From Mayamaea pseudoterrestris (taxonomy: Eukaryota; Bacillariophyta; Bacillariophyceae; Sellaphorales; Sellaphoraceae), in contig BROI01000002.1 of the NCBI GenBank assembly GCA_027923505.1, positions 434,001-498,000 on the forward strand: a stretch of DNA of 64,000 nt, read 5' to 3'. This document shows positions 18,784 to 50,699 of the stretch, piece after piece. The notes below the pieces were generated by a model. That model had not been told where the DNA came from. It saw only the letters and a program-made list of their open reading frames with translations, and searched no databases. The translations under genes were made by a program, and so were the position numbers. Positions within the stretch are counted from its first letter, which is position 1, and each line of letters opens with the position of its first letter.

Positions 18784-18818
18784 CGTCATCTATTATATTT
18801 AAAAAGTTGCTCTTGCAT

Positions 18819-25000: not shown

Positions 25001-25478
25001 CCGCTACGATACCCGGAGTTTTCCATTCATTCCAAGCTTGCAGGCGCCTGGCGCCGAATGGATGACACCCGAGCAGGAGCAATTGACCGCTGTTTACGGG
25101 TGGAGCGTTGTTGGAGTTGTTGGCTTTATTCTACTGCAGTTCATCTGGGGCTGGATTGGTAGCATTAGAAACATGTTCCGGTCTTCGTACAAGCCCAACG
25201 GGGACGACCAAGGAATTAACTTTAGCGATGTTCCTTCCATTAGCACCTACGTGCCGCAAATCGAAAGCAAGATTTACTCCTATCCGCTACTTGCCTGCAA
25301 CGTGGATAAAATTGACATGGAGCTGCTCGATTGGACGGATCCTGATCGTCCGCATTCGTTTTACGATCTCTCAAAGGATGCCAAAATTTTGATCCAAGGC
25401 ATGGACGTTTCGGCTAATACAGTCTTTTCCCAAGTTGCTCACTGGCCGCCAGCGACGACGAAAAATCAGTATCGATAA
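22061..25478 (+). CDS. Large polytopic membrane protein, OSCA/CSC1/TMEM63-like
   Basis: Three exons (22061-22736, 22860-24283, 24369-25478; introns of 123 and 85 nt) give 1069 aa. A ~220-residue disordered N-terminus precedes a membrane part: two helices (FSTLRALTILTLLAGLM and YATLLFIIIGIFFLNIYL), a ~200-residue cytosolic domain that starts YSIVVTNPP and ends VTNVFITFETEADQRKVL, then several further helices including the YYVDKFALMRIW segment. A long cytosolic domain of this kind between helices fits the OSCA/CSC1/TMEM63 osmo- and mechanosensitive channels. Anoctamin-like scramblases share the fold and cannot be excluded. The splice joins all preserve the frame. Confidence 0.65.
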
Positions 25479-25703
25479 GATGCCTATTAAAGTCTGACTA
25501 TGAAAATAAACATCTCGTCATGTTTTAAGTCAATGCAAATAAAGAAACAATACATTTAATAGATTGCAAATAAATTGTGCCCATGGCAAAAACAGATATG
25601 TCAAGCTCCTTTATTAGTGCAGCTACCTTGCTCAGCTCCATTCGCAAACAATCATTCCGTCATCAATCCCTTTCTCATCATCAGCCCATCATCAACATCA
25701 ACA

Positions 25704-30389: not shown

Positions 30390-30720
30390 CAGTCACATTG
30401 CTGTCTACTAAGACTCCAGCCCGGCATACCATCTTGTAGCGCAGCCTAAATTATTATGTTGGCACCATGCTTGTGTAATGTGGATGTATACATGGCATGA
30501 TATATGGGCAATGAATGTCAAGGCATCTGTGGGCTGAGACTGGTGAGAAGTTCTCACCAGTCACATTGCAGTCCGCTGTGACTCCAGCCAGGCATACCAT
30601 CTTGTAGCGCAGCCTAAATAATGATGTTGGCACCATTCTGGTGTGATTTGGGTGTATAAATGGCATGCTATATGGGCAATTGAATGTCAAGGCATCTGCG
30701 GGCTGAGACTGGTGACAAGT
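30389..30720. repeat. Two tandem copies of a ~168-bp unit of a second satellite type
   Basis: Units start at 30389 and 30557 with CCAGTCACATTGC and share GGCATACCATCTTGTAGCGC, TTGGCACCAT and GGGCAATGAATGTCAAGGC-type blocks. They differ from the palindromic units but end in a related AACAACTTGAATCTGCC half-palindrome. Part of this unit is also found before the partial gene copy at about 29065-29150. Confidence 0.85.
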
Positions 30721-30994
30721 TCAACAACTTGAATCTGCCGAGTCGCACCATGCCATGCATGGGATGGATCTTATTACTAACGTTATTTGTTGTCTGAGCA
30801 ACTGCATCATTTTCAATTCATAGCTTCATTACAGCCTTTGGAATAATTCGACCCAGGCAGAACATCAAAATTACGGTAGCCGCTGACAAACTGCAGCAGC
30901 TGTAACAAAGATAATGATTTCATAATCTATAATATATACTACCACCATCGTAAAAGCTTTTTTGAAAGCACAAACACCTTCATTTCGTTGACTG

Positions 30995-31759
30995 TTAATG
31001 CAAACTATTCTCCTCAATCAATCCCAGTTTGGGACCGTGGTAGGTTGGTCGCACGCGCACACTGGCGCTGCGGTGCATCAAGCTGCGTCGGTTGCCAGCG
31101 GCAAAACTGTTGTTGGCGGCAGCTGCATGATTGCTGTTGCTTGTATTGCTAGTGCTAGCCATGATCATATCCTTGTCTTGGCGCGGACCGTCAAAAAGTT
31201 TTTGAAAGGCTTGCTTTTGCAGCATCAAGTCGGCGTCATTGTCGTCGTTATCATCGTCATGATCATGGTGATGCAGATAGTCGCCACTTGCATTATTGCC
31301 ATCCTCGGATCCGCCAAAGGTGCTGGTGGAATTGTCCAGCAAGCACGAGGAGGATGACGAGTCATTGTGATCACCTGCATGACTGTAGTAGTTGCTGTTG
31401 CTGTGCACCGACGACAAGTCGTTCCAGGTGCGAGTCGCCTCGTGCGCCGATAGACTTGATATAGTATGACTTGCCACTGCCCTTTGCGTGTAGTGGCTAC
31501 TGCTGCCGCCGGCAAGGTTGCTGGTGCGGCTGTGGTTGGAGTTGAGGAGCTCGGCCAAGTAAGGGTCATTGGCAAGATATGCCTCGTCCTCTGCCTCGGA
31601 GTGAGTCTCGACGCTTGTATAAGAGCCGTCGTTGCTCTTTGTGGCTGCTCGAGGATTCATGAATAAACTGCTGGATGGTTGCTGGCTGGCGCTTTCCGCC
31701 ATGATGCGGCGATGGTGCGAGGAGGAGGAAAGGTTTTCCATGTCGTCCGTCACTGCCAT
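30995..31759 (-). CDS. Unknown Ser/Asn/His/Asp-rich disordered protein
   Basis: The 254-aa single-exon protein starts at an ATG (31759). No domain is recognised. It is rich in Ser, Asn, His and Asp, including an HHHDHDDD tract near residue 165. The most conserved part is the C-terminus, shared with the partial copy at 29217-29716: a possible amphipathic helix (LMLQKQAFQKLFDG) and a basic, phosphosite-like segment (RRSLMHRSASVRVRP). The duplication covers only this 3' end. Function unknown; a regulatory or scaffold protein is a guess. Confidence 0.6.
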   Translation of the reverse strand: MAVTDDMENLSSSSHHRRIMAESASQQPSSSLFMNPRAATKSNDGSYTSVETHSEAEDEAYLANDPYLAELLNSNHSRTSNLAGGSSSHYTQRAVASHTISSLSAHEATRTWNDLSSVHSNSNYYSHAGDHNDSSSSSCLLDNSTSTFGGSEDGNNASGDYLHHHDHDDDNDDNDADLMLQKQAFQKLFDGPRQDKDMIMASTSNTSNSNHAAAANNSFAAGNRRSLMHRSASVRVRPTYHGPKLGLIEENSLH

Positions 31760-32801
31760 TGCCGTGTATGAAAGTGCTCCTTACAGTTATTCCCCTTGAC
31801 TAGACGCAAAGGAAGACGACTGCTGCTATTAGACGTATAAAGGCGTCGATGAGGGATCAAACCAACGAGAGTCTCTCATCGTCGTCAGTCGCGGAGGGAG
31901 GAAGGCTTCTCAGTCTCGGCGACGACGCGTCGACCCTTGCTGTGGCGTGCATTTCCGTGACGCACCCAACGCGCTTGTTTGAAAACTTCAAGAATGACCG
32001 CATTGACAGTTCTTTTGGCACGACTCGAAGTCAAGCGACGAATTTGACGGGACTCGTGACCATTGCGTGTGTTCGCTAGCTGACCAGCTATCAGACCAAA
32101 GAAAAAAGATCATATCAGCAGTACAAGTAGCACAATACAACTATATCATATTTGCAGCCTCACTGACTTAGCTATGTAGAGTATGCTACAATGGCACTAT
32201 GAGATTGATAAAGTCTCGCGTCGCGACAAGCATTCTGAAACATTTGGACAGTTGAGCAATTTTGGCGAGGTCATTGGCAACCATGAGGCTCCAAAACTTG
32301 AATCTGCACTTCATACGTAAGCTTGGAGAAGCAGTTCGTCGTCTTTTGCCTCTCGTCTTTTATTCGCTTGTTGGAAATCTGTGCCGTCATTGCCGCGGCA
32401 GATTTCTTGCGGCTTCGAGGCTTTGCGATGCGTTTACTACAACGCATGCGTGAGTAGATAAGTCCCTTCTTCTATGAGACTGCTACTTTTACGTAAGGTC
32501 GGATCCTTCTTCTCGCTTGCATGAGGCTGGTGCTTTCATGTTCGCTAGTCGTAAATCTTTGCAGTATTAATATTCACTAACTGGCTTCTATCGCATGATA
32601 CAAGCGCGGTTCTACCGGTACGATTACAAGATACTCTTAGCAATCTACAGCCATTCAACGCATATCAATGTACTTGAAAGATTAAAGTACGTGCGCGTAT
32701 ACGGTATGTATTTCATGGTGGTGGCTTCCTTCCGCATTAAATTACTTGCATGCCGCTATTCATTCATGCATTCATTTCACACTCACACTCTATCATAAAA
32801 T
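31760..32801. other. Long intergenic stretch, no convincing gene
   Basis: About 1 kb between the unknown disordered protein (-) and the 3' end of eIF3G (-). Frames at 31849-32079 (76 codons, Ser-rich) and 32262-32453 (63 codons) are short and match nothing I recognise. No RNA gene or repeat was seen. Confidence 0.45.
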
Positions 32802-33895
32802 CTACCTCGTCAAATTGGACGCATAAGAAACCTTGGCTGTGATATCCTGCGCCAAGACCTCGTCGTAGCCCGATCTAAACTCTATGGCAGCACTAGGATC
32901 ATTGGTGTTGGGTTTGGCAAACTCAATTTTGAGAATCAAATGGTCGTAGCCTGAAGCGCGCGCGCAAGTGGTGAAATAAGAATGCAAGTTAGAACAAGTA
33001 ATAAGGTATGCATGAGGACAGCATACATATGTAAATGCATACCATGTCCCTGCAAACCCTCCATAGCTCGCTCCGCATCCTCCTTATTGACAAATGACAC
33101 GAAGGCAAACCCTCTACTTTCCATCGTTTCCTTATCCTTGATTAAGTAGACGCGCAAAATGGGTCCGTAGCGCGCAAACAGGTCTTGAATGTCCGACTCG
33201 GTGGTGCTCGTCGACAAATTGGTGACCCGCAACGTGTTCAAGTCATCCGTCTGGCGAAAGCCGCCAGTGTCGGGATTGACGAGTTCAACCCGCTGCGTCG
33301 GCGTCATGTACTCGCCGGGGCCAGCAGAGCCTGCTGCACCTGGCGTGGAACCTCCGCCGCTGGCCAATGAATTTTCAACCTGCGTCCAACCCTCGTTGCT
33401 GCCTCCTCCTTCCGCTCCAGGAGTACCGCCAACGTCATACTTGCGCTCCAACTGCCGGCGCTTCTGCTTGGCCCAAAAGGCATTCAAGTTTTCGGCAATG
33501 GCGGCGTCCGCATCCTGATCCTGCAAATCCGTGTTGGCGCGCGGATCCTCCAGTAGAGTTTCCTCCTTGCTTCGCACTGTGTTTTGGTTCTTTTCCTTTG
33601 TGTCAATCGCCGCTTGACCAAACTCCCTCCACTGCCCACGCTCCTGCATACGCTCGGCGTCCTTGGCGGTGACGGTATCCATGTTGCTCTTGGTGATTGT
33701 TTTGATCAATTGGCGCGAGTGCTTGGAGTGACGCTTGTAGGTGGTGGTGGTTTGAATTCCCTGGCTGACGAACCAAGACTCGATTGTGGGTGGCACGACA
33801 TCTTGTTCGTTGGCGTTACTGGAGGAGCCGCGCATTTCCTCGTCATCGGAATCGTCCACGTTTTCGCCCCAGCGGGGAGGAGTAGCTGATACCAT
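32802..33895 (-). CDS. EIF3G: Translation initiation factor eIF3 subunit G
   Basis: Two exons (33895-33043 and 32950-32802; 92-nt GTATGC...AG intron) give 333 aa. The N-terminus (PPRWGENVDDSDDEE) and the central region match eIF3g. The C-terminal RRM has RNP2-like LRVTNLS and RNP1 GFAFVSFV, followed by the family's YDHLILKIEFAKP after the splice. eIF3g helps ribosomal scanning and reinitiation within the eIF3 complex. The C-terminus is extended by ~35 residues beyond the RRM. The ATG at 33895 was chosen because the upstream extension has no conserved part. Confidence 0.92.
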
Positions 33896-34298
33896 GTTTC
33901 TTGCTGGCTTGCTTATCTCGTTAAGAGAGAAACGCGAGCTTGAGAGAAAAGAAACGCCATGGCAGAGGCTCGCAATAAGAACGGTTCGCAAGAAAATCGA
34001 GACTCGTGATGGATGCGTGACCGAAGCAGTGTCATTCCCGTATGACGGTTTCCATGCTCATGTTGAGAACGACCAATGCATGCGAACATGCAAGCATGCT
34101 TACTTAACAAAATGACTGGATTGACATTAAGCGATCTTGCTTGACCAAGGTAAAAGTATCAGGCTTAACTAGATGACTGGATGGATTGGAGTCAAGATTG
34201 AAATAGGTGACCGCGAGAAATGGCAACAGCCTCGAGCGCGATTACAAAAACAAACTCGAGCAAGTCGGCACAAAACAAACGTTTTTGTAAACAATAAC
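33896..34298. other. Divergent upstream region, nothing recognised
   Basis: About 400 bp between the starts of eIF3G (-) and the first secreted cysteine-rich gene (+). The frame upstream of the latter is open but was taken as 5' UTR because the signal peptide begins at the 34299 ATG. Confidence 0.4.
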
Positions 34299-34820
34299 AT
34301 GATCCAACGATTACCCAACATTCTCCTCGTTGCACTTTGTGCCATTTGCAGCAGCACCTTTCTTCCGTCGGTTGCAGCTGCAGCGACGACGGAACCGGAT
34401 GTTTGGATGCTTACGCTGCTGGGCAAGAATGATGAGGACGGCAACTGCAAAGCCCAAGCCGACGAGATTGGAACCTACGTGCAAGACACCTTCAACGCTG
34501 CCATTCCCGGAATCACTCCCTACGATCCAGTCGTTGACGATACAACCAATAGTAATCGCTTTCTGCGCAGCAGCAGTCGCCGCCAGCTTGCCATTAAGCT
34601 ATGCGCCCGCACCTACTGCTCCAAGCCACGCAACTGGGACGAGTGCTACTTTTCCGGATGCTCCTGCAGCTGCGGACGAAGCAGGCAATTGGCGGTCAGT
34701 GCCAGCAGCGACATGGCCCAAGTGCTGAAAGCCAAGCGCGACTTGGACAAGTGGGTGACGGCCAAGGGAGTGGAACTTGGATGTGAGCTTGGACTGGTCA
34801 TGGAGAAAATGAGGGGATAG
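34299..34820 (+). CDS. Small secreted cysteine-rich protein, paralogue A of a four-gene cluster
   Basis: The 173-aa protein has a signal peptide (MIQRLPNILLVALCAICSS...). A ~75-residue pro-region with one cysteine (GNCKAQADEIG) leads to RQL, then a core C-x4-C-x8-C-x4-C-x-C-x-C-G containing YCSKPRNWD and SGCSCSCG, then a second RQL. The C-terminal part is helical-looking and has the last cysteine (LGCELGL). There are eight cysteines after the signal peptide, enough for four disulphides. No known family is recognised. It is closest to paralogue B, with which it is convergent. An extracellular or cell-wall role and R-x-L cleavage are inferred. Confidence 0.78.
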   Translation: MIQRLPNILLVALCAICSSTFLPSVAAAATTEPDVWMLTLLGKNDEDGNCKAQADEIGTYVQDTFNAAIPGITPYDPVVDDTTNSNRFLRSSSRRQLAIKLCARTYCSKPRNWDECYFSGCSCSCGRSRQLAVSASSDMAQVLKAKRDLDKWVTAKGVELGCELGLVMEKMRG

Positions 34821-35362
34821 CTACTGGAGATGAGGATATTGAGACTCGCGTTTAGTCGGTCTCGGGCGCTGTGTACTTTCATAGCTCGCGCGAAGCGTTC
34901 CTGCGATGCGACCGTTGCTGGACGTTCATCTTTGGAAAGTGCTTAACGTTTGTGGCCTCTTTCAAGCTCGAGTGACTGAAACTTTTAATAACGGCGTTTT
35001 GCCATTGATGATAGATTTACATTATGTATATATGCCATCTTTCATCTAGGTAGCGACAACCATTCATCCTGACTGTCCATAGTTCCAGACAACTTGCTTC
35101 GCGTTGTGTAGCAATTTTGCATACTATTCCGTAGTGATCATCCATGCACTCATTCACTACTCGAGTACGTCTTTTGTGATGTACTGTACCTATGTACTTT
35201 CATAAAATAAAGAGTTAATATGACTGCGATAATTCTATCAGCAAGCGGCTTTGTAGCCTTGTTAAGTCTACGTATGAATTGGAAATGCAAGCGGCAACGA
35301 GCGAAGGGATCGTCATGGCCGAGGAAAGAAGGAATAAAAGGTGTTGCATGCATTCTCGTCTC
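34821..35362. other. Intergenic between convergent paralogues A and B
   Basis: About 540 bp, presumably including both 3' UTRs. No gene, RNA or repeat was recognised. Confidence 0.45.
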
Positions 35363-35842
35363 CTAGGTCACCTTTTTCAACACCAATCCAAGCTCACAGC
35401 CGAGCTCCACACCCTTGGTGACAAGCATGGCATCGAGAATTCGCTTGGCTTCCAGAATTTTCGCCTGGTCGCTGGCATTTTCTGACACTAGCTCACGTCC
35501 TCGGCCGCACGTGCATGAGCAACCACTAAAGATGCAAACGTCCCAGTTGCGTGGCTTTGAGCAGTAGGTGCGGTCGCAAACGTTAATGGTGGTAAGCTCG
35601 CGGTGGACGCTGCGTAGAAAGCGGCCAGCATTGTCATCTGGATAGTAGGTGGTAAAGCCAGGGACGGCGGCGTTGAATACATCCTGGACTTGCTGACCTA
35701 TCGCATCGGCTTGGGCGAGGCAAGCACCGTTTACATCGTTTCGCCCGAGAACGTTGAGCGCCCAAAGGTTGGCCGGTTTGGCGGCAGAAACCGAATGAAC
35801 GCAGGCAAATGCAGCAAGGAGGAGTGACAGGATTTGGATCAT
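35363..35842 (-). CDS. Small secreted cysteine-rich protein, paralogue B
   Basis: The 159-aa single-exon protein starts at an ATG with a signal peptide (MIQILSLLLAAFACVHSVSA). It has the same plan as paralogue A: pro-region cysteine (GACLAQADAIG), REL, core with YCSKPRNWD and SGCSCTCG, second REL after CGRG, and C-terminal LGCELGL. All eight cysteines align with A. The identical C-terminal GVELGCELGLV shows that A and B are a recent pair. Function unknown. Confidence 0.8.
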   Translation of the reverse strand: MIQILSLLLAAFACVHSVSAAKPANLWALNVLGRNDVNGACLAQADAIGQQVQDVFNAAVPGFTTYYPDDNAGRFLRSVHRELTTINVCDRTYCSKPRNWDVCIFSGCSCTCGRGRELVSENASDQAKILEAKRILDAMLVTKGVELGCELGLVLKKVT

Positions 35843-36642
35843 GTTGAAAGTCTGGAGGTGAATGGCTTGGACAATTTTGTCGAATTATGAGAGCTTGGAG
35901 ATTGGCGATTGTCGGGAGGCGTTTGATGAGTTTGTGAGTGCATTGCGCAGCATGGCGCCCGGCGAAAGTTTTTAATCGTCGAATCATCGTCGGAAATGGC
36001 CAGTGACTTGAAGGGCCTATTCGTCAATGACCACCGAAACCGTTCGACTGGTTAATTTAAGTAGGCAATGAATCAGTCAAAGTTCCGGTGAAATATCTGT
36101 CTTGAACTGTCGTCATTAAGGCTTAAGCGAGGCAATACACTGACTCCTAATCGTAAAATCTCGACGCCAAGGAATACGAACAATCAAACGAGTATTCCAA
36201 TGGCCTGGCGATCTCTAGCCATTTTGATTGGATCAAAGTCAATGGCACTCTGACATGCACGACTGACCGGCTTAGTCAGTAGAATGAAAACCACTGTTCA
36301 AGCGGACCTGCGAGGCATGTTGACACTTTTGACGAACCAACCTTCGGATACTCCGCGTGGCGCGCCAGCAGGAATTAAATCCATCGTAGCGGTACTAATA
36401 TTTAGCTATTTTATATTCACCGGTACAACCTACCGGTATGGACGATCGTCGCTTATGTTAGCTGATACATGATGAATGCCACGTACAGTGTAAAGTATCA
36501 TTATCGTAATACACTGCTTATGAACAACATTACTACAACGCGGTATCTAGTTAGGCTGGTTGTGGACCTTTTTTAGCATTTTCCTTGTCGTGCGACTCCA
36601 CACAAACTTGATTCACAAGCATTGCGCGTTATCAGATTTGCC
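35843..36642. other. Intergenic, nothing recognised
   Basis: About 800 bp between paralogues B and C. A 62-codon plus-strand frame (36284-36472) matches nothing. It should contain the promoter of B and the 3' UTR of C. Confidence 0.45.
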
Positions 36643-37140
36643 TTATATGCCCAAGTCATTTATCGAGACTTGAGATAAAGTCACTCCAAGTATGCAGCCC
36701 GGAATAGATGCGGTAGCATTAGCCACAAACGTCATCAAAGCTTCGCGGGCAACTCGAATGTCTCCTCCACTCGCTTGGCCTTGTACAATTAACCGCCTCT
36801 TGCCACATGAGCACTTGCATCCGCTATAGTAGCAATAGTCGTAATTGGCAGGCTTAGAGCAGTAGCTTGCAGTGCAAACTTTTACTTGAAGTTCGCGACC
36901 CTTTGAATGCTTTAGATAACGTCGTCGCCCGGAGGCCCCAGTGTAGTCGCTTAATCCAGGAACAAGGCGCCCGAGCTTAGCCATCAAAGTGGGTCCTATG
37001 GAGTCACCCAAAGCGGCACAACGTGATGTTCCTGGAGCATCATTTCCGGCGACTGTAAGCTGGTATACTTCCGCGTCCTTTGCGACAGCAAGGCTCGTGA
37101 CTACAGATAAGAGGATGGCAACTATCTGAAATATGTTCAT
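36643..37140 (-). CDS. Small secreted cysteine-rich protein, paralogue C
   Basis: The 165-aa protein has the ATG at 37140 and a signal peptide (MNIFQIVAILLSVVTSLAVA). Pro-region cysteine in SRCAALGDSIG, then REL, then a core with YCSKPANYDYC and SGCKCSCG, then RRL in CGKRRL, and a last cysteine in PGCILGV. It keeps all eight cysteines and the exact core spacing. It groups with D by the NYDYC and GCKCSCG wording. No known family is recognised. Confidence 0.8.
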   Translation of the reverse strand: MNIFQIVAILLSVVTSLAVAKDAEVYQLTVAGNDAPGTSRCAALGDSIGPTLMAKLGRLVPGLSDYTGASGRRRYLKHSKGRELQVKVCTASYCSKPANYDYCYYSGCKCSCGKRRLIVQGQASGGDIRVAREALMTFVANATASIPGCILGVTLSQVSINDLGI

Positions 37141-37877
37141 TGTGTTCAAGTGTGATGTTGCCTTTGCGTAGATTTGAAGTCCGACCTTCACTTTCCGAAA
37201 GATAATGGTTGCATTCTACCGGTAGGCTGGTCGGCTGGTCCTACTTATTCTTTCGCTGTCACTGGCCGAACTGCTTTTACTCGTAGAATGAATCGCGCCC
37301 AAAGAAGCAAAGTACGGAGTAACTCCAGTACAGTACGTATGTACAGTAGGGCAGTGTCGAACCATCCGAGGAACAATGACAAGAGTCCATGTGTCTGGGC
37401 GTGGTATCTTTTCAGGCCGCCCTCCATTTTTCTCCTCACGTAGTCCTAAAAGACTATTGTGTGTACCCTTGCCCAGTGCCAACAATTCAATTCATGCCTT
37501 CCCAAGATTTTGAGGCTGAATTTTTAAATCTCGAGTATATGCTAACGGAACTCGTACAAATAGCTGTTACCGTATTGGCATTGCGTTTTGCGTGATTTAG
37601 TGCATTGTACATTGTAGCGGTTAAAGGCCTCGAGGCAATCGCAGCGCTATCACACCTAAGTTCAGGAAACCACCGGATTTTAGGCTAGTAGGTGTGATAT
37701 CAGACGTTTAATTTTATTAGTAATTCTAAAATGTCTCACAGCAGCTTTCGGTCGGCGCGGGTCGCACTCAATGTGCTCAATCTTGTTTTTCGGTTGGCCT
37801 TAACATTACACGTTTGCAATGCCCATGAGTATCGTCTGTCGAGCATCCAAAGCCTCGCAACGTTAGAGTCCTGGAAG
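37141..37877. other. Intergenic, nothing recognised
   Basis: About 740 bp between paralogues C and D. No coding frame with a recognisable product, RNA or repeat. Confidence 0.45.
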
Positions 37878-38378
37878 TTACAAGCCAAACTCGTCAGAGT
37901 CCAGTTCCGTCATGACCATTTCCAACGTACAATCTGGAACCGTCGCGGCCGATGTTTTGACCAATTGTTCCATTGCCTTTCGCGCCACTTGAACGTCTCC
38001 TCCGTTGAGCTCCTTCGGTGCGAGCATGCGACCTCTGCCGCACGAGCATTTGCAACCAGAAAAGTAGCAGTAGTCATAGTTTTGCGGCTTGGAGCAGTAC
38101 GTTTTCGTGCAGACTTTTGTTTGCAGCTGGCGGTGCGTCTTTGATTTAGGTTCCTTCAAGTGGCGGCGGCGACGACGAGCGTTATAGTCACTCAGCCACG
38201 AAGCAAGGTTTTGAAAGGTTTCCATCACTTGCGGACCAAGGTTTGCTCCCAAGGTGGCGCACTTTGTTCCGGGTGCAGCGTTCCCGACGATGGACACTTC
38301 GTAGACGTCCACCTTTGCGGCGTCAGTCGCAAGTAGAAGCGACAGGAAACAGACAATGGCAAAGTGCTTGGTCATCAT
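37878..38378 (-). CDS. Small secreted cysteine-rich protein, paralogue D
   Basis: The 166-aa protein starts at the first of two adjacent ATGs (38378) with a signal peptide (MMTKHFAIVCFLSLLLATDA). The pattern is as in A-C: TKCATLGANLG, a basic stretch with RQL directly before the core, YCSKPQNYDYC and SGCKCSCG, RML in CGRGRML, and a last cysteine in PDCTLEM. The pro-region ends in an arginine-rich stretch (RRRRRHLK). It shares the NYDYC version with C. Function unknown. Confidence 0.8.
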   Translation of the reverse strand: MMTKHFAIVCFLSLLLATDAAKVDVYEVSIVGNAAPGTKCATLGANLGPQVMETFQNLASWLSDYNARRRRRHLKEPKSKTHRQLQTKVCTKTYCSKPQNYDYCYFSGCKCSCGRGRMLAPKELNGGDVQVARKAMEQLVKTSAATVPDCTLEMVMTELDSDEFGL

Positions 38379-39186
38379 ATTCGAGCATATGGATATGCAA
38401 GGAGAATGTCGCGGATTATAACAAGTTGCGACAGCAAGATCAAAAGTTGACCACCTGCTAAATTGACGAACAGAAACGGCGCTTGTCATTGGGGCATCAA
38501 ACGAGGGGCTAATGACTGTTGGGCTTCCTTTTGATACGCCGAAAAGGCCTTTCGCAATATCAGGCAATATATATGAAGCTTGCAATGAAAGTCACATGAC
38601 TTTTTCCTATGCTTCGAATTCGGAAGCTTTCGTCTTTGGATGACTCACCGATTGAGTACTCATGTCCCGTTGCAAGGAACGCCAAGCAATTCGGTCGGCT
38701 GCTCGACTGCCATGGCGGCGGCTTTCTTCTCGAGCGTTGTACTCCATGTACAGTACTTCCCTTGCCATCGTAGTTATGACACTTCTACCGTATCTTTAAG
38801 CGCTATCCTCTTAGGTATGTCTAGGAATGTGCAAGTTGTCTCCCGGCTGCTGCCACTGTCCCCCTTGCTTCGGCGATGAATCCAAATTGCAATATACCAT
38901 CTTTCGACTGATCGAACTTAACACGTTCATGAAAGAGTAGCACCCAACATGTACTGAGAAGCAAGTGAAGTCTCTCTTTAGAACGTTGATAAATGTTACA
39001 ACCATTTTATTGACCGTGCCCTCACTTTTCTTTCGCAGGGCGCTTGCAGTAAGCAGTCATCATGGCACATGGCACGGTCACCAGGTCATTTTATCGCATC
39101 AATCGGGAGAACCTTGGCCCTGCTCGTCCAGTCCCTTTATGGACCATTGCTAGTGAGTGATCAAACAAATTTAGACACGAAATCGC
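38379..39186. other. Divergent intergenic stretch, nothing recognised
   Basis: About 810 bp between the start of paralogue D (-) and the sulfotransferase-like gene (+). Only short frames without recognisable product. Confidence 0.45.
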
Positions 39187-40431
39187 ATGTTTTCATCCGA
39201 CAAGTCGACATCCATTATGAACAAGCCTTGCAGTCAATCATCCTTTGAAACGAGCTGCAGTGACGACGATGACAATGAGATTCTGACGAATGATTTATGC
39301 ATGCATCGCTCAATTACGTTCCGAGGAAGATACATGTTTGCGACAATGCTCGTCTTGATCTTGGGTGCCTTTGGAACGACAACCTTTCAGCAATACGCAG
39401 CAGATAGTCAAAAAAGTAACATCATGCGTTCCTCCGATGCATCGATTTCATCATTCACGTCTCTGGAGCTGACAGACGATGGAAAGGTGACTTGGACGAC
39501 GCGGCCGTCGCCTCCCGCAGGTTCCTTGCTTGATCCAGTGATTGAAGCGTTTCGACAAGGAATGACGATTGATGCCGCAAGCATTGCCATTCACGCTCCT
39601 CGTGCCTCCTCCGACTGCTCCTGCTATAATACTACGATAAAATCACCCGATCCATGCTGCGGTCGCTTTTACATTCGCGGCCACAAAATGGGTATTCAGT
39701 TGGTTTCGCTGCTGTTTCCAACCTTCCACTTTGACAATCGCTATTTACCACTCAACGCGAAGCATTACGTTGACTCGGACTTGCGCGTGGCGGTCGTGTT
39801 GCGAAACGTTTACGAGTCCATCGTGTCGGGCTATCTCTATCACAGGCAGGGCCGCGAGTGCTACACGGATCCCAATGGTTTGCCGCTGCGCGACAAGGCG
39901 ACGCATCAGCCAAAAATTGGAAACACTGACTTTGTCAAGTATACAACTTTTCTCAATGATACGACATTAGCAGCATTTAGTAGTAGCAACCAAACAATCA
40001 TTGCTGGCAATCTGTGTCAGTTCATCATGGACGAGCCGGTGGAACGTGGCATGCGCGCCTACATTGACTTTGTCTTTCGCGGCGACTACTACAAAAGCAG
40101 TCTGTTGGCTTGGCGTGCCTTGTCGCAGCACATTGACTGGATTGGCGACTTAACCCACGTTGCGTGCTACGAAGACCTCATGACGAATCGAACGGAAACG
40201 TTGCACGAGCTACTACATTTTTACTATCCATCCGGCGTTCCGCCGGCAATGGCAGCCAAAGTTGGCAGCAAGCTTGCGTCGCGATCAAATGTTACTTACA
40301 GTGGACCGCACGCGACCAACCACGATGCTGACTTGAGGGCGAGCTTGGTGAATGTTGTCAAGGCGCTTGACAGTGAATTCTACCATGGGCAGATTGCTTA
40401 CGAGGATTCCATGACTCCTTGCGGCAAGTGA
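39187..40431 (+). CDS. Golgi-type sulfotransferase-like protein
   Basis: The 414-aa single-exon protein has type II topology: a cytosolic ~47-residue N-terminus, one hydrophobic anchor (FATMLVLILGAFGTTTF), then a lumenal domain. The strand-helix LRVAVVLRNVYESIVSGYLYH resembles the 3'-phosphate-binding segment of PAPS sulfotransferases (R-[DN]-P-x-x-x-x-x-S). RGHKMGIQL could be the degenerate 5'-phosphosulfate loop, and CYEDLMTNRTETL fits the later E-DL segment. Several N-glycosylation sequons are present (NQT, NDT, NRT, NVT). It would sulfate glycans or proteins in the Golgi. The family call rests on short motifs. Confidence 0.6.
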   Translation: MFSSDKSTSIMNKPCSQSSFETSCSDDDDNEILTNDLCMHRSITFRGRYMFATMLVLILGAFGTTTFQQYAADSQKSNIMRSSDASISSFTSLELTDDGKVTWTTRPSPPAGSLLDPVIEAFRQGMTIDAASIAIHAPRASSDCSCYNTTIKSPDPCCGRFYIRGHKMGIQLVSLLFPTFHFDNRYLPLNAKHYVDSDLRVAVVLRNVYESIVSGYLYHRQGRECYTDPNGLPLRDKATHQPKIGNTDFVKYTTFLNDTTLAAFSSSNQTIIAGNLCQFIMDEPVERGMRAYIDFVFRGDYYKSSLLAWRALSQHIDWIGDLTHVACYEDLMTNRTETLHELLHFYYPSGVPPAMAAKVGSKLASRSNVTYSGPHATNHDADLRASLVNVVKALDSEFYHGQIAYEDSMTPCGK

Positions 40432-41209
40432 AAGGTTTCTTCAAGCTTGTACGACCAGCAGTAACAGTCAGGAGTAACGGAAATAAAGTCGGAAGCTCCG
40501 GTGTAGTGGCAGCGAATTTCTTGCTTGCAATGTTGCCTCACTCGTGTGGCTCGTTGCATGTTGGCGACAGCGGCGCGGGTGTAGGTAGGATGAATTGTAG
40601 GTATAACGTCAACAATTTGAAGCTTGTGTATAGTATAAAATTGAGGATATCACGTTACGAGTCGTTGATCGATGAGATGCAGCTACTCTACACGAATTTC
40701 CGCGCAAGTCATTGTTGCGGCGGAGTCTCGTCCTCGTTTGCCTAAAGGCACGTAGAGAGTCGACAGCTCGCAAGGGCAAAAACAGTCCGTGCAATCACCC
40801 TTTAATCATGCGCCTTGTTCAATCGAGACGCACTTTCGTCGTTAATCGTTGCGGAGGACCAAGAGCGCCCTCGTTAGTTTGTCGAGCATTGCGGCAAACT
40901 TGGCAATGATCACGCGCATGAAGCTGTCAGTACAGGTCCGATCTGTGAACCAATGCGACAATCGATTCCAGATCGACGCCCGTCCTCCACCATGAGCAAA
41001 AAATTACCCTTGCCATTGCAACTTTAACTGCAACCAGTCTTTGCTATACAACATATTATATCATCTTGGAATCTACTTACTGGGCTCTTGCTATAGTTTA
41101 TAAAGTATTTACGGAAGAAAGTAGAAGTTGAACCGCAGCGAAATACGTGTTCGATTTTCAAGCCATCAAGCGAGCAGCCATCAATCAGTTAACATCAAGT
41201 TTACCAACA
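40432..41209. other. Intergenic, nothing recognised
   Basis: About 780 bp. The MON2 frame stays open for 21 codons upstream of the chosen ATG but begins at GTG. A 108-codon frame at 40419-40745 overlaps the preceding gene end and matches nothing. Confidence 0.45.
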
Positions 41210-44200
41210 ATGAACTTTGTCCAAACACTGGAGGAATCCCTCCGCGACTTGGCATCCGAGGCTCGCAAAAAGCATCCGGGCGTCAAGGAGGCTTCCGAGC
41301 GCGCCACCTTGCGGCTGCGAATGCTTCAAACGCAATACGTTAGCAAGGTGCGGCAAGCGAACAGTAGTAGTCAAGCCAGTGCGAATGGTTCGAATGATGC
41401 AGCAAAGACGACGACGACGACAAATCACCCAACGACGCAACTATTTGCTCATTCCGAAATTCTTCATCCCTTTCTACTCGCTGCCAATTATCCGAACGCA
41501 TCGGCCGAACTATTGAACATTTCCTTCAACAGCATGCAGCTACTCATGCGCGCCAATGCCGTTCAACCATCCGACGCCATTCAAATGCTGCGGGTATGGA
41601 TGATTCAGGCGCAGAATGTCGTCTCGTGTTACGAAAAGCTGTACGCCAAGGAAATTTACTTGCAGACCGAGTCGCAGCAACATGAATCGGCGGCGGCAAC
41701 CAATCACGCAGCAGGCAGTACCACCAGCAGCTCGTCGTGGTTCTCCTGGGGATCATCCAGTGCAGCAGCGACAACGGATCCAAGCAGCAGCAACTATAAG
41801 CAGTCGAGTAACAATCAGATTCAATCCACAAAGTCATCCTCCACAACACTATCATCCCAGCAGTCGCCGCTACAAATGGAGCATTGCGCCAAGCAAATTC
41901 TCAGTTGTTTACTGCAGCTGCTGGAACTGTTGAAGGAGCACTACGCAAAACACTTGACGGTGGAACTGTGGACCAATGCCATGGCACTTGCCTGCGTCTG
42001 GCTGCACTACACGCCAATCAAGCACACCGTGCACCAGGCGGCAGTGTCAACCTTGAAGCAAGTCATGAATTTATTGTATTCCGCAGCAGCAGCAAACGAC
42101 AAGTTGCTGCAGTCCACCTGGGACGATTTACTGCAATTATGCGACGTGAATATACAAGCAAATATCAACTTGACGGGAGCCTTTTCACTCTGCCAGCGCA
42201 GCGTGGCGCACAATGCCACTGTGTATCCGCCGTGCGCGGAACTGGCGCTGCAACTACTGACGCGACTTGAGCGTGAACACGATGTAGCATTGCCACCAAG
42301 GTTGCTGCAAAAGACGTTTGGGATATCCGTGCAGCTCCTATTGCAACTAGACAAACGCGGCACGTCGTTGGAAAAGTGTTTGCGCATTGCGCAGTGGACG
42401 ACGGTGCTCTTTCAAAAATACTTTGTCAGCTACTCGGGCGAATGTTTGGAACTGCTAGAGTTGCTGTTAAAACCGATTGCAGCGGCCACGGATATTTGTC
42501 GGAGTCATGATGACTTTGAGGATGGTTACGTGTATACGGCGAGTGATGCGGATATAGTGTTGCTGGCGGAACAACATGCATCGAGCGACGGAAAGAAATT
42601 GTCGTCGACGCGAACATTGACGACGTTGATTCCACCGAGTGTGTTGTGGAAGGCGGTGTTTAGCTTGGAGGCAATTTACGTTATATTTGATAGAGATGAT
42701 CCGATGGAACTGTCAGTGATTTTGGAGGATGCAAGGATAGTTTTGGCGCTGTCGGAAACGCTGAGTGACTTTGCAACAATAGGAGCAAGCTGCATGGACC
42801 ATTTGCTGCAGTTCGTCAGCTTCGGCAAGTCGCTTCCGTTTTCTGGCAATGAAGTGTTTGCCAAGTCGTTGACCAAGGTGAAACCAACATTTTTTCGAAC
42901 GGCGGAGCAAGCATGCACGAGTGGAAACGCGCAGTCTCTGCTAGTGGATGGTGCGTCGACCGACAAGTCGACATCGTCTCCAAGCTCTGGGGTTCTTGGT
43001 GAAGCGCTATGGATTACTTTACAAAATTTGTTGCGGCTACCAGAGTGTATGATTGGTTTGAATGGCGTGGAGCAAATGCTGGAGCAAACGTTTGCTCCAT
43101 CTTTGGCAGTTCTGCAACATTATCTAAAGCGATGCATCGGCTCAAGCGATTTGGTGCAACTTTCACTCAAGGGTTTTGCAAATCTTGCTGACGTGTGTCT
43201 ACCACTGGGTACGATACATCGAAAGGCGCTGCTCCTCTCACTTTGTAAGCTTTCGCTGCCAACCTGGGGGCAGCGCGACTCCACTGCTCAGCTACAGGAT
43301 CATCATGTCATGACATTGCTTTATCTATGTCGCATTATTCATACACACTACGAATTCATTATTGATGATTGGGAAATAATTCTTCGGACATTCGACGAAC
43401 TATCCGATATTTCAATTGCATCGAAGCAACTTTCTGACGAGTCTTACCACGCGGCGCTTGCGGTCTCCAACCTTTTCAGTCGCCTGGCCCCTTTTTCGAC
43501 GTGTTTCTCGTCCTCATCCTTGTTAAGATTGGCAGAAGCTCTCACAGAAATCACCAAGACGAGATTAGAGGGCTTGGATGTAGTTGGAAGCAACGATACC
43601 GTGCTAGCACAGCGAACGAAACCAGTCGATGCTCTTGCACGGCAGTCATCGGATGGAGGCGAAAGCAGTAGCATTAGCTCGAAAATAATGAACATTGGCG
43701 TTAGAGCCATTTATGGAAACGAATCGGAAATACAACAAAAGACGGAAGGCTCGAAAGGAACAAGGATAGTCGGCACTTTCTGTGGTGACTACCGACATGA
43801 ATATGTAAAACGGATATCTTCGGCAAAATCAACGATGCGAGTGAACGCTGTCGGCGACATTCCGTACGTTTTGGCTGTACTCACGGATTTGGTCATGGCC
43901 AATTCCTTTCGTTTCGAGAAATGCGGAGATCAGCTTTCAGAACAGCTATCGCGCTTGGCATCAATTTCTCCAGCCGTCCGACCATTCATCATGGATGTCT
44001 TGTCAGTGCTGGCAATGTCCCATTTGTCCAGTGAAAGAGCTCTTCCGGCTCCGTTTGTAGGACCTGGAAGGTCTATTTTTGAGGATCCAATGCAGAGCCA
44101 GCTGTGGGCCGTGGAAGAGTGTAGCGACAAACAAAGTTCTACGGAAGGTGGCATTCAAACCTATGAGTTTGGCGCCAAGTCGCAGTCCGATTTACTCTCG

Positions 44201-45925
44201 CCGCTATGTCTGAGAATTCAATCAGCAGAAAAGCCTGATATGGCCGAATCATCCCTTGGTGCTCTAAGCACTATCATTGAAGGCGTTGGTCATAACATGA
44301 CGGGCGATGTATGGTGCCATGTGATTGACGCTGTGGCTTCCTTGTCGGGTGACCCAACTTACACGGCAGTAGATCGAACTCATGCTCCTTGGATAAACTG
44401 TTCATCATTGGCTTTTCGATGCCTTAAGTTCATTGTCGACGACTTTAGAGACCAGCTTACGCAGTCAGAATCCGCCTCGAAGACATTGACCTCGCTTCTT
44501 GATTGCTGTACTTCTTTTGGGCGATCCAAACATGATGTAAATATTTCATTGACGGCAATAACACTGCTATGGACCATCGCAGACCAAGACCCGGACTCAG
44601 ACTCGGTCGACAGAGCACTATCAAGGCTGTTGGACTTGGCTGCGGATGTTCGAGCAGAGATTCGGAATGCCGCTGTAAACACACTGTTCTCCTGCATTAT
44701 CGGACGCGGCAGTGGCTTCACGCCTGCGCGCTGGAAATCTTGTTTCTTGGATACTATTTTTGGAGTCTATGACATGGTTGCGAATTATGCTGGTACAGAT
44801 GTTGCTAGTGGAGACAGTGGCGCGGGATCGGGAAAGCGATACAGGGTTTCGCTCCACCATTCGCGAGATTCAAGCCAAAAGCAATGGCTTGAAACACAAT
44901 CACTTGTTCTCCGTGGTCTGATCAGGTTGCTTCGGAGTTATTTCTCGCTACTACTCGACGAAGCCGATCACCAAAGCATGACTGTCACAGGACAACCGCC
45001 ACGAACATGGTTTGAGGATGCTTGGTTAAGAATTCTAGACTACAGTTTTGACGCTGCTACCTACGAAGGTGGACGGGATACTTTGGCTATGCGGACAACT
45101 GGGCTTGAGCTAATGGTGCTCTGCTGTCAGCTAGCCAGCAATGATGGAGTTGAAGCAGCGACTGCTCCTGCTCGTGTTTCGACTAATATGGAAGTAATTA
45201 ATGGTGCGCTCCGTACTGTTCGTGAACCACAGTCGGTCAAGATGTTGGAAGAGAGAGTTCTTTCAGTGTCCACTAACGACAGACGGAAGCAGCTGTATGT
45301 TGATGCTTTCGAGGCAATTGAAGCATATAATGAAGCCGTTTCAAAAACGATATCGCAAGGTGGAAATGGTGACGAGACGACGGTCCAGGTGATCCACTCA
45401 TTTGTAACAAGCTTACGTCACTTATACGATTGTTCGATGAGCAGCGAGCTCTCTTCTGATAATGCCAAGGTACTGCACTCGCTCGACCGCTCGGAGGAAA
45501 CGTCAGGTATAGATGTTGGTGTTGGAGATTTGGAGCCTCGGTTTGTTCAAATCGTTAGCGACATGTTGAAAGCAGCTGGTAATTACTCGTCATCACGGTT
45601 TTTGAATCAAGGACAACGTGTCTCGCTCAATTTGTTGCGGACGATAGCGTCGAACGGTTCTGCTGTGGCGTTTACTGCGTTGGTCGATATGGCTGGTAAA
45701 TCTCTTTTCGTACATTCGTCTGAACAGGCGGACGACAAGGGCAGCCAAACCGCTTTGCGCAATGAAGCGTCCGACGCTATCTCGCAAGAGATTGTAAAGG
45801 ATACTGTTTCTTGTGAATGCAAATCCTTAATTCTTTACCGAGTGCTGAATGTCTTTCTTGGACACTGCCTCGCAGATACGACCAATCGTTGCCGACGTCA
45901 GCTGCCCACAGTTCCAGACCGTTGA
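41210..45925 (+). CDS. MON2: MON2-like endosome-to-Golgi trafficking protein, 3' end cut off by retroelement
   Basis: A single open frame of ~1571 codons. The start (TLEESLRDLASEARKKHP followed by VKEASERATLRLRML) matches the N-terminal DCB domain of MON2, the non-catalytic relative of Sec7/BIG Arf-GEFs that scaffolds flippase and Arl1 function at the trans-Golgi. A Ser/Thr/Gln-rich insert lies at about residues 165-230, and the remainder is long alpha-helical HEAT-like sequence. At about 45.8-45.9 kb the gene runs into minus-strand Ty1/copia sequence, and the frame stops at 45925. The protein would therefore lack its natural C-terminus and carry a short foreign tail. Full MON2 proteins are about 1600-1700 aa, so the loss may be modest. 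Domain borders beyond the DCB are inference. Confidence 0.78.
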   Translation: MNFVQTLEESLRDLASEARKKHPGVKEASERATLRLRMLQTQYVSKVRQANSSSQASANGSNDAAKTTTTTNHPTTQLFAHSEILHPFLLAANYPNASAELLNISFNSMQLLMRANAVQPSDAIQMLRVWMIQAQNVVSCYEKLYAKEIYLQTESQQHESAAATNHAAGSTTSSSSWFSWGSSSAAATTDPSSSNYKQSSNNQIQSTKSSSTTLSSQQSPLQMEHCAKQILSCLLQLLELLKEHYAKHLTVELWTNAMALACVWLHYTPIKHTVHQAAVSTLKQVMNLLYSAAAANDKLLQSTWDDLLQLCDVNIQANINLTGAFSLCQRSVAHNATVYPPCAELALQLLTRLEREHDVALPPRLLQKTFGISVQLLLQLDKRGTSLEKCLRIAQWTTVLFQKYFVSYSGECLELLELLLKPIAAATDICRSHDDFEDGYVYTASDADIVLLAEQHASSDGKKLSSTRTLTTLIPPSVLWKAVFSLEAIYVIFDRDDPMELSVILEDARIVLALSETLSDFATIGASCMDHLLQFVSFGKSLPFSGNEVFAKSLTKVKPTFFRTAEQACTSGNAQSLLVDGASTDKSTSSPSSGVLGEALWITLQNLLRLPECMIGLNGVEQMLEQTFAPSLAVLQHYLKRCIGSSDLVQLSLKGFANLADVCLPLGTIHRKALLLSLCKLSLPTWGQRDSTAQLQDHHVMTLLYLCRIIHTHYEFIIDDWEIILRTFDELSDISIASKQLSDESYHAALAVSNLFSRLAPFSTCFSSSSLLRLAEALTEITKTRLEGLDVVGSNDTVLAQRTKPVDALARQSSDGGESSSISSKIMNIGVRAIYGNESEIQQKTEGSKGTRIVGTFCGDYRHEYVKRISSAKSTMRVNAVGDIPYVLAVLTDLVMANSFRFEKCGDQLSEQLSRLASISPAVRPFIMDVLSVLAMSHLSSERALPAPFVGPGRSIFEDPMQSQLWAVEECSDKQSSTEGGIQTYEFGAKSQSDLLSPLCLRIQSAEKPDMAESSLGALSTIIEGVGHNMTGDVWCHVIDAVASLSGDPTYTAVDRTHAPWINCSSLAFRCLKFIVDDFRDQLTQSESASKTLTSLLDCCTSFGRSKHDVNISLTAITLLWTIADQDPDSDSVDRALSRLLDLAADVRAEIRNAAVNTLFSCIIGRGSGFTPARWKSCFLDTIFGVYDMVANYAGTDVASGDSGAGSGKRYRVSLHHSRDSSQKQWLETQSLVLRGLIRLLRSYFSLLLDEADHQSMTVTGQPPRTWFEDAWLRILDYSFDAATYEGGRDTLAMRTTGLELMVLCCQLASNDGVEAATAPARVSTNMEVINGALRTVREPQSVKMLEERVLSVSTNDRRKQLYVDAFEAIEAYNEAVSKTISQGGNGDETTVQVIHSFVTSLRHLYDCSMSSELSSDNAKVLHSLDRSEETSGIDVGVGDLEPRFVQIVSDMLKAAGNYSSSRFLNQGQRVSLNLLRTIASNGSAVAFTALVDMAGKSLFVHSSEQADDKGSQTALRNEASDAISQEIVKDTVSCECKSLILYRVLNVFLGHCLADTTNRCRRQLPTVPDR

Positions 45926-48900
45926 GTTCCGCTAACATCGCTACCATTCGTAGACTTCGCAATGACACAACGCCCGAGTAAACTGAATCCTTCGGCGGCT
46001 CTGTCATATGTCCTCCTGCAACGAGTCGTGCTTTCCGTCGCAAATCGTGCTTGACATCGAATATCATGTGCACGTTTATTCGTTTCCACGGCGCCGGCAT
46101 AACCTTACCGACTCCTTGATCTGCGAACGTGTCGTAATCATTTATCTGATTTAATTCCGTTCGAATCGCATCCGTCCACAGCGTGTTGCCGTTGATCTCG
46201 TCGAGAGCTTTCGCATCTTTATAATTGCGCGGCAACCTTACGCCGAATTTGTAGCGTACGCCGTTTGCTTTCGATTTTCGTTTCGCCGCTGTTACCATCT
46301 GTCGAAACTTCTTTCGCTTCCGAGTGTAATGCTCCAGCGCTGCTTCCATCCTGGCTTGTCGAGTAAGCCGTGCTTGAGTCCATACTCTGCGATCGTTATC
46401 GGATCGTCCTTCTTCATGATCGCGAGAGGCTCCCACGTCGTCGTTCCGTCAGTCCATTCGACGAGAACGTTACTTGAACTTCCTTTGTATGTCGGATCGT
46501 TCGGTTTCAAATTAAGCTCGTGTCCGATTACCTTCGTGAATACCCACTGAGTCGCCGGATCGTTTCGTATATCTTCGTCCATCTGTCGTTCGATTAAATC
46601 CGACAGTTCGTTGTAACTTATTAAGTCTTTCGCTGGCTCCTCTCCCATTTGGATTAGGAAACCTTTCGTCGTTTCCGAGTAGCTCGTTATCGCGTACTTC
46701 GATATATTCGCATACAGTCGCTCGCATTTTCTGACCGTTTTCGTGTTCCACCCTTACGAACGTGCGTCCGATGAGTTCGCTTGGAGAGAACAGAGGGCAT
46801 TTATTCCCTGATTCTTGCTCAGCCCTTCTGAAGAACTTCGCTGGTACGTTGGCGTGGTTCGCCATCGGAATTGTTTCGTCGTCGTTTCCTTCGTAGTTGT
46901 CGTGACTACTTTCTGTCACATGCGTGCTATGGTAGCGTCCTGTCGCGAGATCTGGAGTTTCAAAATTTCGCTCGCTTGCGCGTGTAGCTTCTTCAGAAAT
47001 CTCCCCCTCCAGACTCAGGGAAGGAAGGCAACTCGTGGTAACAAGTAGCTGCGCGAGACCACGTTGGAGCGCGGAATCGCCTGAAGCGTGTCGTCCGTCA
47101 GAACGAGAAAAGTCATGCGGACCGCTATTCTCTGCGATGCCCACGAATCGGCCGTTGCCAGATCGTACCGCCGAGGGAAAGCTCCCCTGCGCCTCAAACG
47201 TGACCGGTTCCCACCACTTGAAATGTAACAAAGGCGGAAATATCCGGCAGATTTCCGAACGCAACTTCCGTTGGCGCGTCGCCATCCCAGCGATTTCGTC
47301 GCGAGGACGTTCAGTATCATGATTACGAATTTAATCAGCAAAACCCAGCAATGGCCTGGCGAACCCGAATCTCGTTGGAGGTTCTCCATCATTATTTAAT
47401 GTGCGACGTGTGACGTTCGCATGGATTTTGTTCTGGATGACCCGGTTCTGTGGTCACTTGAGGAATATTGTACATCCGACAGAGATCCCTCACAGCCTTG
47501 CCAGTCTCCGACTCGGCATTGTCGCTGAGCAGTCCGTTAGGAGCGCCCACTTCGCGGATAAAATCCTCTAACGCGTTTGACATTTCGCTCTCCGACTTCA
47601 TCGGGTAGCCGCGCGTGTAAAAACTTTCTCGTCCAACAAAGAGCTGCATCTTAGTAGCTCCCCATGCCCTAGAAATTCCATCATCCAAAGCTGGCGTGTC
47701 AGAGTGTATCGTGTCCGTGGCGAATAGTTCGCGCAACCGCTGAACGTTCGCGGCCGGAAATCGTGATTTCGTGAGGTGTCGAAATGGTAATCGCGGGTGT
47801 GCGCTGAGATGATACCATGCTTCCGTGTGACGTAAAGTCTGTTGAACGCGCTCAGTCGGGACCCATCCGAGGTAACGGGCCGAAGAGCATTATAGTCCGG
47901 TTCCTTGCTTCTTAGCTTCCGCAAATTAACGCGTGAAAACTGAGCGTGTCGCACGCACCGATTGATCAGTACGTCAAGTTCGTCGCCAGTGCGTGTCGGC
48001 GTGTGACGATTGCGGTGCGTGATACCGTCATCATCGAATCGTTCGTCGAAAGATCCATAATCATGATCTCGTTCGTCGAAATCGTCGTGCGCGTGCTCGA
48101 CATCGTAAACAGTCGAGTCCCACGGCACGTCCGACGTCATGATGACAGTCGGATACTTATCCAAATCATCGAACGTGGGTTTCGTCACGTCCAAGTACAC
48201 CAGGCCATCGCGAATTGCCAATGGCAAAACGTAGCCTCCAATGTTCGTCGTAATTCGTTGCGTTCCGCCAAACATGGTCGGAATATCGTCGACGCGATGT
48301 CCCATTGCGCGCAATTGATTCGGGCAATGAATCGTCGGTCCGTCTCGCTTTAAAAGCATACTGGTGACACAGAAGCAGAATGGTTTCGCCACTAAGGGTC
48401 TTTGCCAGTCCAGCTGCAGTGCCAATCTTGAGAGCTGGGACAATATGATCGTCAATACCAGTCACATCCACCTCGGCGTTCGTTTCCGAAACGACGAGCA
48501 TGTCTCCTCCGCATAAGCCTCCGTTCGCGCCGCTGTCGATGAGCGCGCCTTCGTTGATCCGCTCGTAGTGTGCGCGATTGACGCGCAACGACGATGCATG
48601 TTGAAGCTGAATGTACCTCGTCCGGTGTTATCAGTCGTCAACGATCCTGTCACTTGCTGAGTTGTAGTACTCGCATTGTTCGCTTGCAGAACCGATCGTG
48701 CAGCCGTTTGGACTGACATTCCACTATTGCCGGGCTGAATATTAATCGTGCCAGGAACGCTTGCGTGATCGTTCGCTACAGATTCCGTCGCGTGACGCTC
48801 TTGATGCGCCGCGTTGACTTGCGTCTGCGTCGTAGCCGTGCCTCGTTGGTTGCGCGGTCGCCATCCGTTTTCGGGTGTCTTGGGCGCCGTCGCACGCTTG

Positions 48901-50520: not shown

Positions 50521-50699
50521 CTTGTAACTTGTAAATCAAATCGTTGCACCTTTCGCTTGTAGCTGTCCTTGGATGGCCAATCCAAGCTTGCAGTTGCTAC
50601 AATACGAGAGACGAATAAATCGCTTTCTTAACTCTTCAAGCTTAGTAAGTCTGCTTGTTTCTACTCTATATCGCACTAGTTTCAGCAATATACTTGTTG

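What the first reader, a model, noticed from the sequence alone, without database searches (positions are those of the whole stretch)
34299..38378. Four-gene cluster of secreted cysteine-rich proteins whose core is bracketed by R-x-L sites
Paralogues A (34299-34820, +), B (35363-35842), C (36643-37140) and D (37878-38378, all -) each have a signal peptide and exactly eight later cysteines. Six form an invariant C-x4-C-x8-C-x4-C-x-C-x-C-G core with YCSKPxN[WY]D and SGCxCxCG. In all four, an R-x-L tripeptide sits just before the core (RQL, REL, REL, RQL) and another just after it (RQL, REL, RRL, RML). R-x-L is the endoproteolytic site described for diatom silaffins and cingulins. I infer precursors from which a ~30-residue disulphide-rich peptide may be released. 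I recognise no known family; a role in the cell wall, adhesion, defence or signalling is open.
Basis: partly seen in the sequence, partly recalled or inferred. Interest (0 to 1): 0.85.

Follow-up and report, generated by a model that had tools for sequence, protein, structure and literature searches.

The report
Diatom R-x-L-bracketed cysteine-rich secreted proteins
A diatom carries a small family of apparently secreted proteins whose compact cysteine-rich core lies between short motifs known from diatom cell-wall proteins as likely cutting sites; the motif pair persists in distant relatives, but cutting and function have not been shown.

Summary
In detail: four paralogues, eight later cysteines, a six-cysteine core, R-x-L on both sides. 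One correction: each has two R-x-L sites before the core, not one. The genome is a diatom's (silicon transporters). The cluster lies in a 15.3 kb segment that also exists on contig C6 at about 90% DNA identity, all four genes open. dN/dS between copies is 0.07-0.13 for A, C and D; no core codon differs in meaning.

Two divergent, intron-containing relatives on C13 (E, F) also have R-x-L on both sides: 10 of 10 readable members. F lost two core cysteines yet kept both motifs, and is in frame with a domain that has bacterial relatives. Two more core matches on C15, each with an in-frame stop, could not be read.

Low-confidence models put every R-x-L of A and D in segments with pLDDT under 50. 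R-x-L processing is plausible, unshown; the core may instead belong to one domain. No relative found in Pfam, PDB, or the viral, prokaryote and phage collections scanned. Other diatoms could not be searched.

The parts
34299..34820 (+). Gene A, 173 aa
34557..34565 (+). A upstream R-x-L (RFL, followed by R)
34581..34589 (+). A R-x-L before core (RQL)
34602..34676 (+). A core, first cysteine to the G after the last
34683..34691 (+). A R-x-L after core (RQL)
35363..35842 (-). Gene B, 159 aa
35615..35623 (-). B upstream R-x-L (RFL, followed by R)
35594..35602 (-). B R-x-L before core (REL)
35504..35578 (-). B core
35489..35497 (-). B R-x-L after core (REL)
36643..37140 (-). Gene C, 165 aa
36913..36921 (-). 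C upstream R-x-L (RYL, followed by K)
36889..36897 (-). C R-x-L before core (REL)
36802..36876 (-). C core
36790..36798 (-). C R-x-L after core (RRL, shifted by one residue)
37878..38378 (-). Gene D, 166 aa
38157..38165 (-). D upstream R-x-L (RHL, followed by K)
38124..38132 (-). D R-x-L before core (RQL)
38037..38111 (-). D core
38022..38030 (-). D R-x-L after core (RML)
30556..45887 (.). Segment also present at C6:1174426-1189858 at 90.2% DNA identity; carries second copies of all four genes

Best explanation
A family of secreted diatom precursor proteins. An N-arm (strand, helix, one cysteine) and a C-arm (helix, strand, one cysteine) are probably tied by a disulphide. Between them a cysteine-rich hairpin core sits on flexible linkers that carry R-x-L sites. 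The still unknown R-x-L endoprotease of diatoms would cut there on the way out, removing or nicking the N-arm and possibly freeing a core of about 30 residues; the product goes to the extracellular matrix (wall, mucilage or adhesive). Shown: sequence, architecture, purifying selection, R-x-L on both sides in all 10 readable members. Inferred: secretion, disulphide pairing, cutting, destination.
For: R-x-L on both sides in 10 of 10 readable members, chance 0.07-0.70% for each. R and L of the upstream site are the only invariant residues between the conserved Tyr and the first core cysteine in the alignment of A-D and their copies (the second site is misaligned there by the placement of gaps in B). 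F keeps both motifs though it lost two core cysteines. All three R-x-L of A and of D lie in segments with pLDDT under 50. No core codon of 100 differs in meaning between the C2 and C6 copies. R-x-L is described as a processing site of secreted diatom proteins (passages of PMC4557024, PMC5647440). No furin/kexin P domain was found in the genome. F is in frame with a domain related to bacterial proteins, a hint at an extracellular role.
Against: No proteolysis, transcript or localisation data. Low pLDDT is also found in the core itself, so it does not mark the linkers off. E and F have one pre-core R-x-L, not two; E has two more R-x-L elsewhere, one of them inside the core, so not each R-x-L can be a cutting site. 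R-x-L is short and common: 0.75-0.89 expected per mature window protein. One paper calls R-x-L processing unproven (passage of PMC5647440). F shows no signal peptide in the frame read.
Confidence: 0.45

Rival explanations
1. One compact disulphide-bonded domain, perhaps ferredoxin-like (beta-alpha-beta-beta-alpha-beta), of which the core is an integral part. Only the upstream R-x-L is cut (pro-region removal), or none is; the product is an intact extracellular binding protein.
For: Order of elements in model D: strand, helix, strand, strand, helix, strand. Several weak Foldseek hits of model A are ferredoxin-like proteins (fold names partly recalled). A cysteine in each arm in all 10 readable members.
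Against: Mean pLDDT 56-57, pTM 0.5. No Foldseek match at E 0.001 or better; best 0.49 for A and 6.9 for D. Model A has an extra strand. It does not explain the R-x-L after the core.
Confidence: 0.3
2. The released core is a diffusible defence or signalling peptide, not a matrix part.
For: Size, net positive charge of 1-2 in the core, disulphide-rich pattern, tandem and segmental duplication.
Against: No family match. The core is conserved, not fast-evolving. The F module sits in a larger frame.
Confidence: 0.1
3. Processing by a furin/kexin-type protease at basic residues; R-x-L is incidental.
For: RFLR in A and B, arginine runs in C and D upstream, R-x-R or RR just before the trailing site in A-E.
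Against: No PF01483 match in the genome at E 0.001 (searched without regard to introns, so a split domain may be missed). Pairs of basic residues occur at the pre-core site in only A and F of the six types A-F, R-x-L in all six.
Confidence: 0.07
4. The C-x-C-x-C core binds metal ions.
For: Clustered C-x-C-x-C in A-D and their copies.
Against: Predicted secretion favours disulphides. F has no C-x-C-x-C. R-x-L is left unexplained.
Confidence: 0.05

Closest known systems
Silicanins / SiMat7-like proteins (PMC5501833 section 7; PMC5525289 passages)
   Same: Diatom; signal peptide, R-x-L site, eight conserved cysteines in the SiMat7-like family
   Different: Those have a C-terminal transmembrane helix; Sin1 has 426 aa, an NQ-rich domain and 18 cysteines. 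Here about 145 mature residues, 5.5-10.8% N+Q, no clear membrane helix. Sequences could not be compared
Silaffins, cingulins, silacidins (passages of PMC4557024, and PMC5525289)
   Same: Secreted diatom precursors with R-x-L sites
   Different: Described as having one or no cysteine and random-coil structure; here eight conserved cysteines and predicted arms
SAP proteins of the silica vesicle membrane (passages of PMC5647440)
   Same: R-x-L near the N-terminus in all, and in SAP1 and SAP3 another after the conserved domain
   Different: Transmembrane, serine-rich, cytoplasmic conserved domain
Diatom adhesive trail proteins said to come from bacteria (title only, in reference lists)
   Same: F is in frame with a domain whose relatives are in bacteria
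   Different: Paper not held; whether the domain is the same is unknown

Membership tests
Silicanin / SiMat7-like | N-terminal signal peptide and an R-x-L site | tested here: met
   Hydrophobic N-terminus by Kyte-Doolittle, no predictor; R-x-L
Silicanin / SiMat7-like | C-terminal transmembrane helix | tested here: not met
   Best 19-residue mean after the signal 0.63-1.15 in A, B, D and their copies; 1.55 and 1.64 in the C pair, which is borderline
Silicanin / SiMat7-like | Eight conserved cysteines at the family's positions | tested here: inconclusive
   Number agrees; positions not comparable, no silicanin sequence at hand
Silicanin (Sin1) | Long NQ-rich domain with 18 cysteines | tested here: not met
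   N+Q 5.5-10.8%, 8 cysteines, 139-145 mature residues (window proteins)
Diatom R-x-L-processed precursor (functional class) | R-x-L after the signal peptide and at the edges of the product | tested here: met
   10 of 10 readable members on both sides of the core
Diatom R-x-L-processed precursor (functional class) | Cleavage at R-x-L | not testable with these tools
   Needs mass spectrometry
Oomycete RXLR effector | R-x-L-R after the signal peptide (definition recalled) | tested here: not met
   Present in A, B, F; K at the fourth place in C and D; absent in E. EER motif not tested
Ferredoxin-like fold | beta-alpha-beta-beta-alpha-beta with significant structural match | tested here: inconclusive
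   Order seen in model D, extra strand in model A, no significant Foldseek match

The most novel reading that the evidence does not exclude
A secreted 'excisable loop' design: two arms tied by a disulphide hold a cysteine-rich core between diatom R-x-L cutting sites, so that the wall-protein protease frees a folded disulphide peptide instead of a random-coil silica precipitator; one relative carries the same module in frame with a domain of bacterial ancestry.
Probability: 0.28. Interest if true: 0.75.

Novelty: new variant of a known kind. Interest (0 to 1): 0.47.

Why it matters
One paper states that R-x-L cleavage sites had so far been found only in biosilica proteins, and the protease is unknown (passages). 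A small, apparently folded family that keeps the sites on both sides of its core in widely diverged paralogues would be a compact substrate for finding that protease, and would extend R-x-L processing to disulphide-rich proteins. It also gives a profile with which other diatom genomes can be searched.

Tried and rejected
Whole-genome duplication or an allodiploid genome as the cause of the second cluster: rejected for this region, because window 17000-25600 matches only itself apart from a 135-base stretch at 73%. Relatives in the viral, prokaryote and phage collections: none (33; 96). Relatives in the PDB: best E 0.21, circumsporozoite protein, taken as chance; E protein best 1.8; profile none up to E 10. 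The only Pfam match, DUF1088 to D at E 0.025 and below the curated cut-off, was taken as chance. Two other weak genome hits: the C14 hit covers signal and N-arm only, the C1 hit lies opposite a silicon-transporter frame; both taken as chance. Pattern searches: of 11 YCSKPxN sites 8 are the family and the 3 others show no core; of 16 SGCxCxCG sites 8 are the family and 8 were not read (the backward control pattern gave 7). An IgGFc/vWD identity for the domain before F, guessed from memory: no Pfam match up to E 5, dropped. I first took the C15 matches as intron-bearing; on checking, each is 120 continuous bases for 41 residues with a TAG inside, so no intron of the C13 kind fits and they may be decayed. 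Splicing: the automatic filter listed four other introns for E and none for F, because it barred the acceptor that I then chose by hand; chosen for the GTAAGT donors and because C-x8-C is restored in both.
Full report
Setting. The window is contig C2:434001-498000 of an unnamed 30.6 Mb genome in 41 contigs. It is a diatom by its silicon transporters: PF03842 gives 10 matches, 9 over the cut-off, best E 2e-197; of 14 control genomes one rings, below the cut-off. The species was not identified.

Observation. In C the trailing site is shifted by one residue. A and B have an extra R-x-L in the C-arm. Shuffling the residues outside the core gives both flanks in 0.41-0.53% of trials for each window protein; shuffling the linkers alone gives all three sites in at most 0.06%, and single sites in 4-7% (before), 4-6% (after) and 11-23% (upstream). 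Paralogues share ancestry, so these are not independent.

Second copy. Searches of the whole genome with A, C and D return each of the four genes twice: in the window and, in the same order and orientation, at C6:1178171-1182297. The shared segment is window 30556-45887 against C6:1174426-1189858 at 90.2% DNA identity. Identity falls to 72-85% in some 250-base bins between the listed frames and is 97-100% in all ten bins of 34806-37305, which suggests gene conversion. Window 17000-25600 has no such second copy, so this is a segmental duplication. Between copies dN/dS is 0.11 (A), 0.13 (C) and 0.07 (D); B has one silent and one amino-acid change, too few for a ratio. Codons that differ in meaning: core 0 of 100 (4 differ silently), signal 7 of 88, N-arm 4 of 213, linker 1 of 63, after the core 6 of 197. 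The numbers are small, but the genes are under purifying selection.

Distant relatives. A weak hit on C13 (E 0.047) proved to be a relative when protein C was aligned to it. Searching with that stretch found a second one 3 kb away. I inferred a GT-AG intron of 94 (E) and 79 bases (F) at the same place and phase in the core, by hand (see Tried and rejected). E (254 aa, C13:627313-626455, hydrophobic N-terminus) then has C-x5-C-x8-C-x4-C-x-C-x2-C-G, with RNL 7 residues before and RSL after. F (ending at C13:623338) has C-x3-C-x8-C-x4-C without the last two core cysteines, with RYL before and RSL after. A profile of A-D scores E at 8.4e-9 and F at 1.8e-5 for an assumed 12,000 proteins. A genome search with E returns all eight cluster genes at 3.3e-6 to 4.4e-4. 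The same search gives two core matches on C15 (53% over 41 residues, E 2e-5), each 120 continuous bases with one TAG inside; they may be decayed copies, and their letters could not be fetched. So 10 of 10 readable members have R-x-L on both sides. E and F have one pre-core R-x-L, not two. E also has RFL inside the core and RNL further on, a reminder that not each R-x-L need be a site.

The F fusion. F's first exon lies in one 585-codon open frame with an upstream domain containing WDHWEDGYE. That domain has relatives at 16 loci of bacterial records (16 of 28 pattern matches confirmed; Ilumatobacter, Verrucomicrobia, Bacteroidota groups such as Segetibacter and Saprospiraceae, Desulfobacterales) and at three more places in this genome, on C25 and C16, which the module searches did not hit. 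A profile of A-F found no module in the 16 bacterial loci, which hold the match and about 1 kb on each side. Plasmids gave no match. No transcript proves the fusion, and no signal peptide was seen in the frame. The title of a paper on diatom trail proteins acquired from bacteria appears in two reference lists; the paper is not held, so this is only a lead.

Structure. AlphaFold2 on mature A and D with the four window proteins gave mean pLDDT 57 and 56, pTM 0.52 and 0.51. Both have strand and helix before the linker, a short hairpin in the core, helix and strand after it; A has an extra strand. All three R-x-L sites of each lie in segments with pLDDT under 50, but much of the core does too or is little better, so confidence alone does not set the linkers apart. 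The order in D is that of a ferredoxin-like fold; Foldseek gave nothing significant (best E 0.49 for A, 6.9 for D). Each of the 10 readable members has one cysteine in the N-arm and one in the C-arm. The C-arm one is an invariant column; the N-arm one of E and F is displaced by some residues and not aligned with that of A-D. I infer that the two pair.

Interpretation. R and L kept in diverging linkers point to a recognition motif. R-x-L is described as a processing site of secreted diatom proteins, with the protease unknown and the role called unproven in one paper (passages). No furin/kexin P domain was found here (blind to introns). I favour R-x-L processing of a secreted precursor; whether the core is freed or kept in one domain is open. 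The destination is inference.

Comparison. The SiMat7-like family shares eight conserved cysteines, signal peptide and R-x-L (PMC5501833, section 7 read), but its members are all predicted to have a C-terminal transmembrane helix, and Sin1 is long, NQ-rich and has 18 cysteines (PMC5525289, passages). The present proteins fail these features, the C pair being borderline in hydropathy, so I do not file them there, though no sequences could be compared. Ten paper searches listed nothing that I could see to describe this family; that is weak evidence, since sequences cannot be searched so and many journals are not held.

Noticed in passing
window 41210-45925 (+) and 45887-50836: A Mon2-like frame (PF16206, PF16213) of 1571 aa ends where a 4.95 kb dispersed repeat begins, 99.5% identical to two places on C6; the C6 counterpart lies in a longer open frame of 1871 codons. 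No direct terminal repeats were found within window 45701-51100.
   Followed up: partly
window 51200-59700 (C2:485200-493700) and C2:505039-513539: 100% identical over 8501 bases, 19.8 kb apart: a very recent tandem duplication or an assembly artefact.
   Followed up: partly
G000:C1:2970661-2974680 (-): Three silicon-transporter domains in one 1445-codon open frame.
   Followed up: no
G000:C13:624191-625117 (-); C16:164169, C16:169485, C25:113206: Diatom proteins with a WDHWEDGYE domain whose relatives are in bacteria; possible horizontal transfer, no tree made.
   Followed up: partly
window 34806-37305 against C6: Tract of 97-100% identity inside a duplication of 90% overall, suggesting gene conversion over B and C.
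   Followed up: partly
window 17545-18783 and 19015-19797 (+): Two neighbouring frames of 412 and 260 aa share a long near-identical protein stretch, a recent tandem duplication (read in the list).
   Followed up: no
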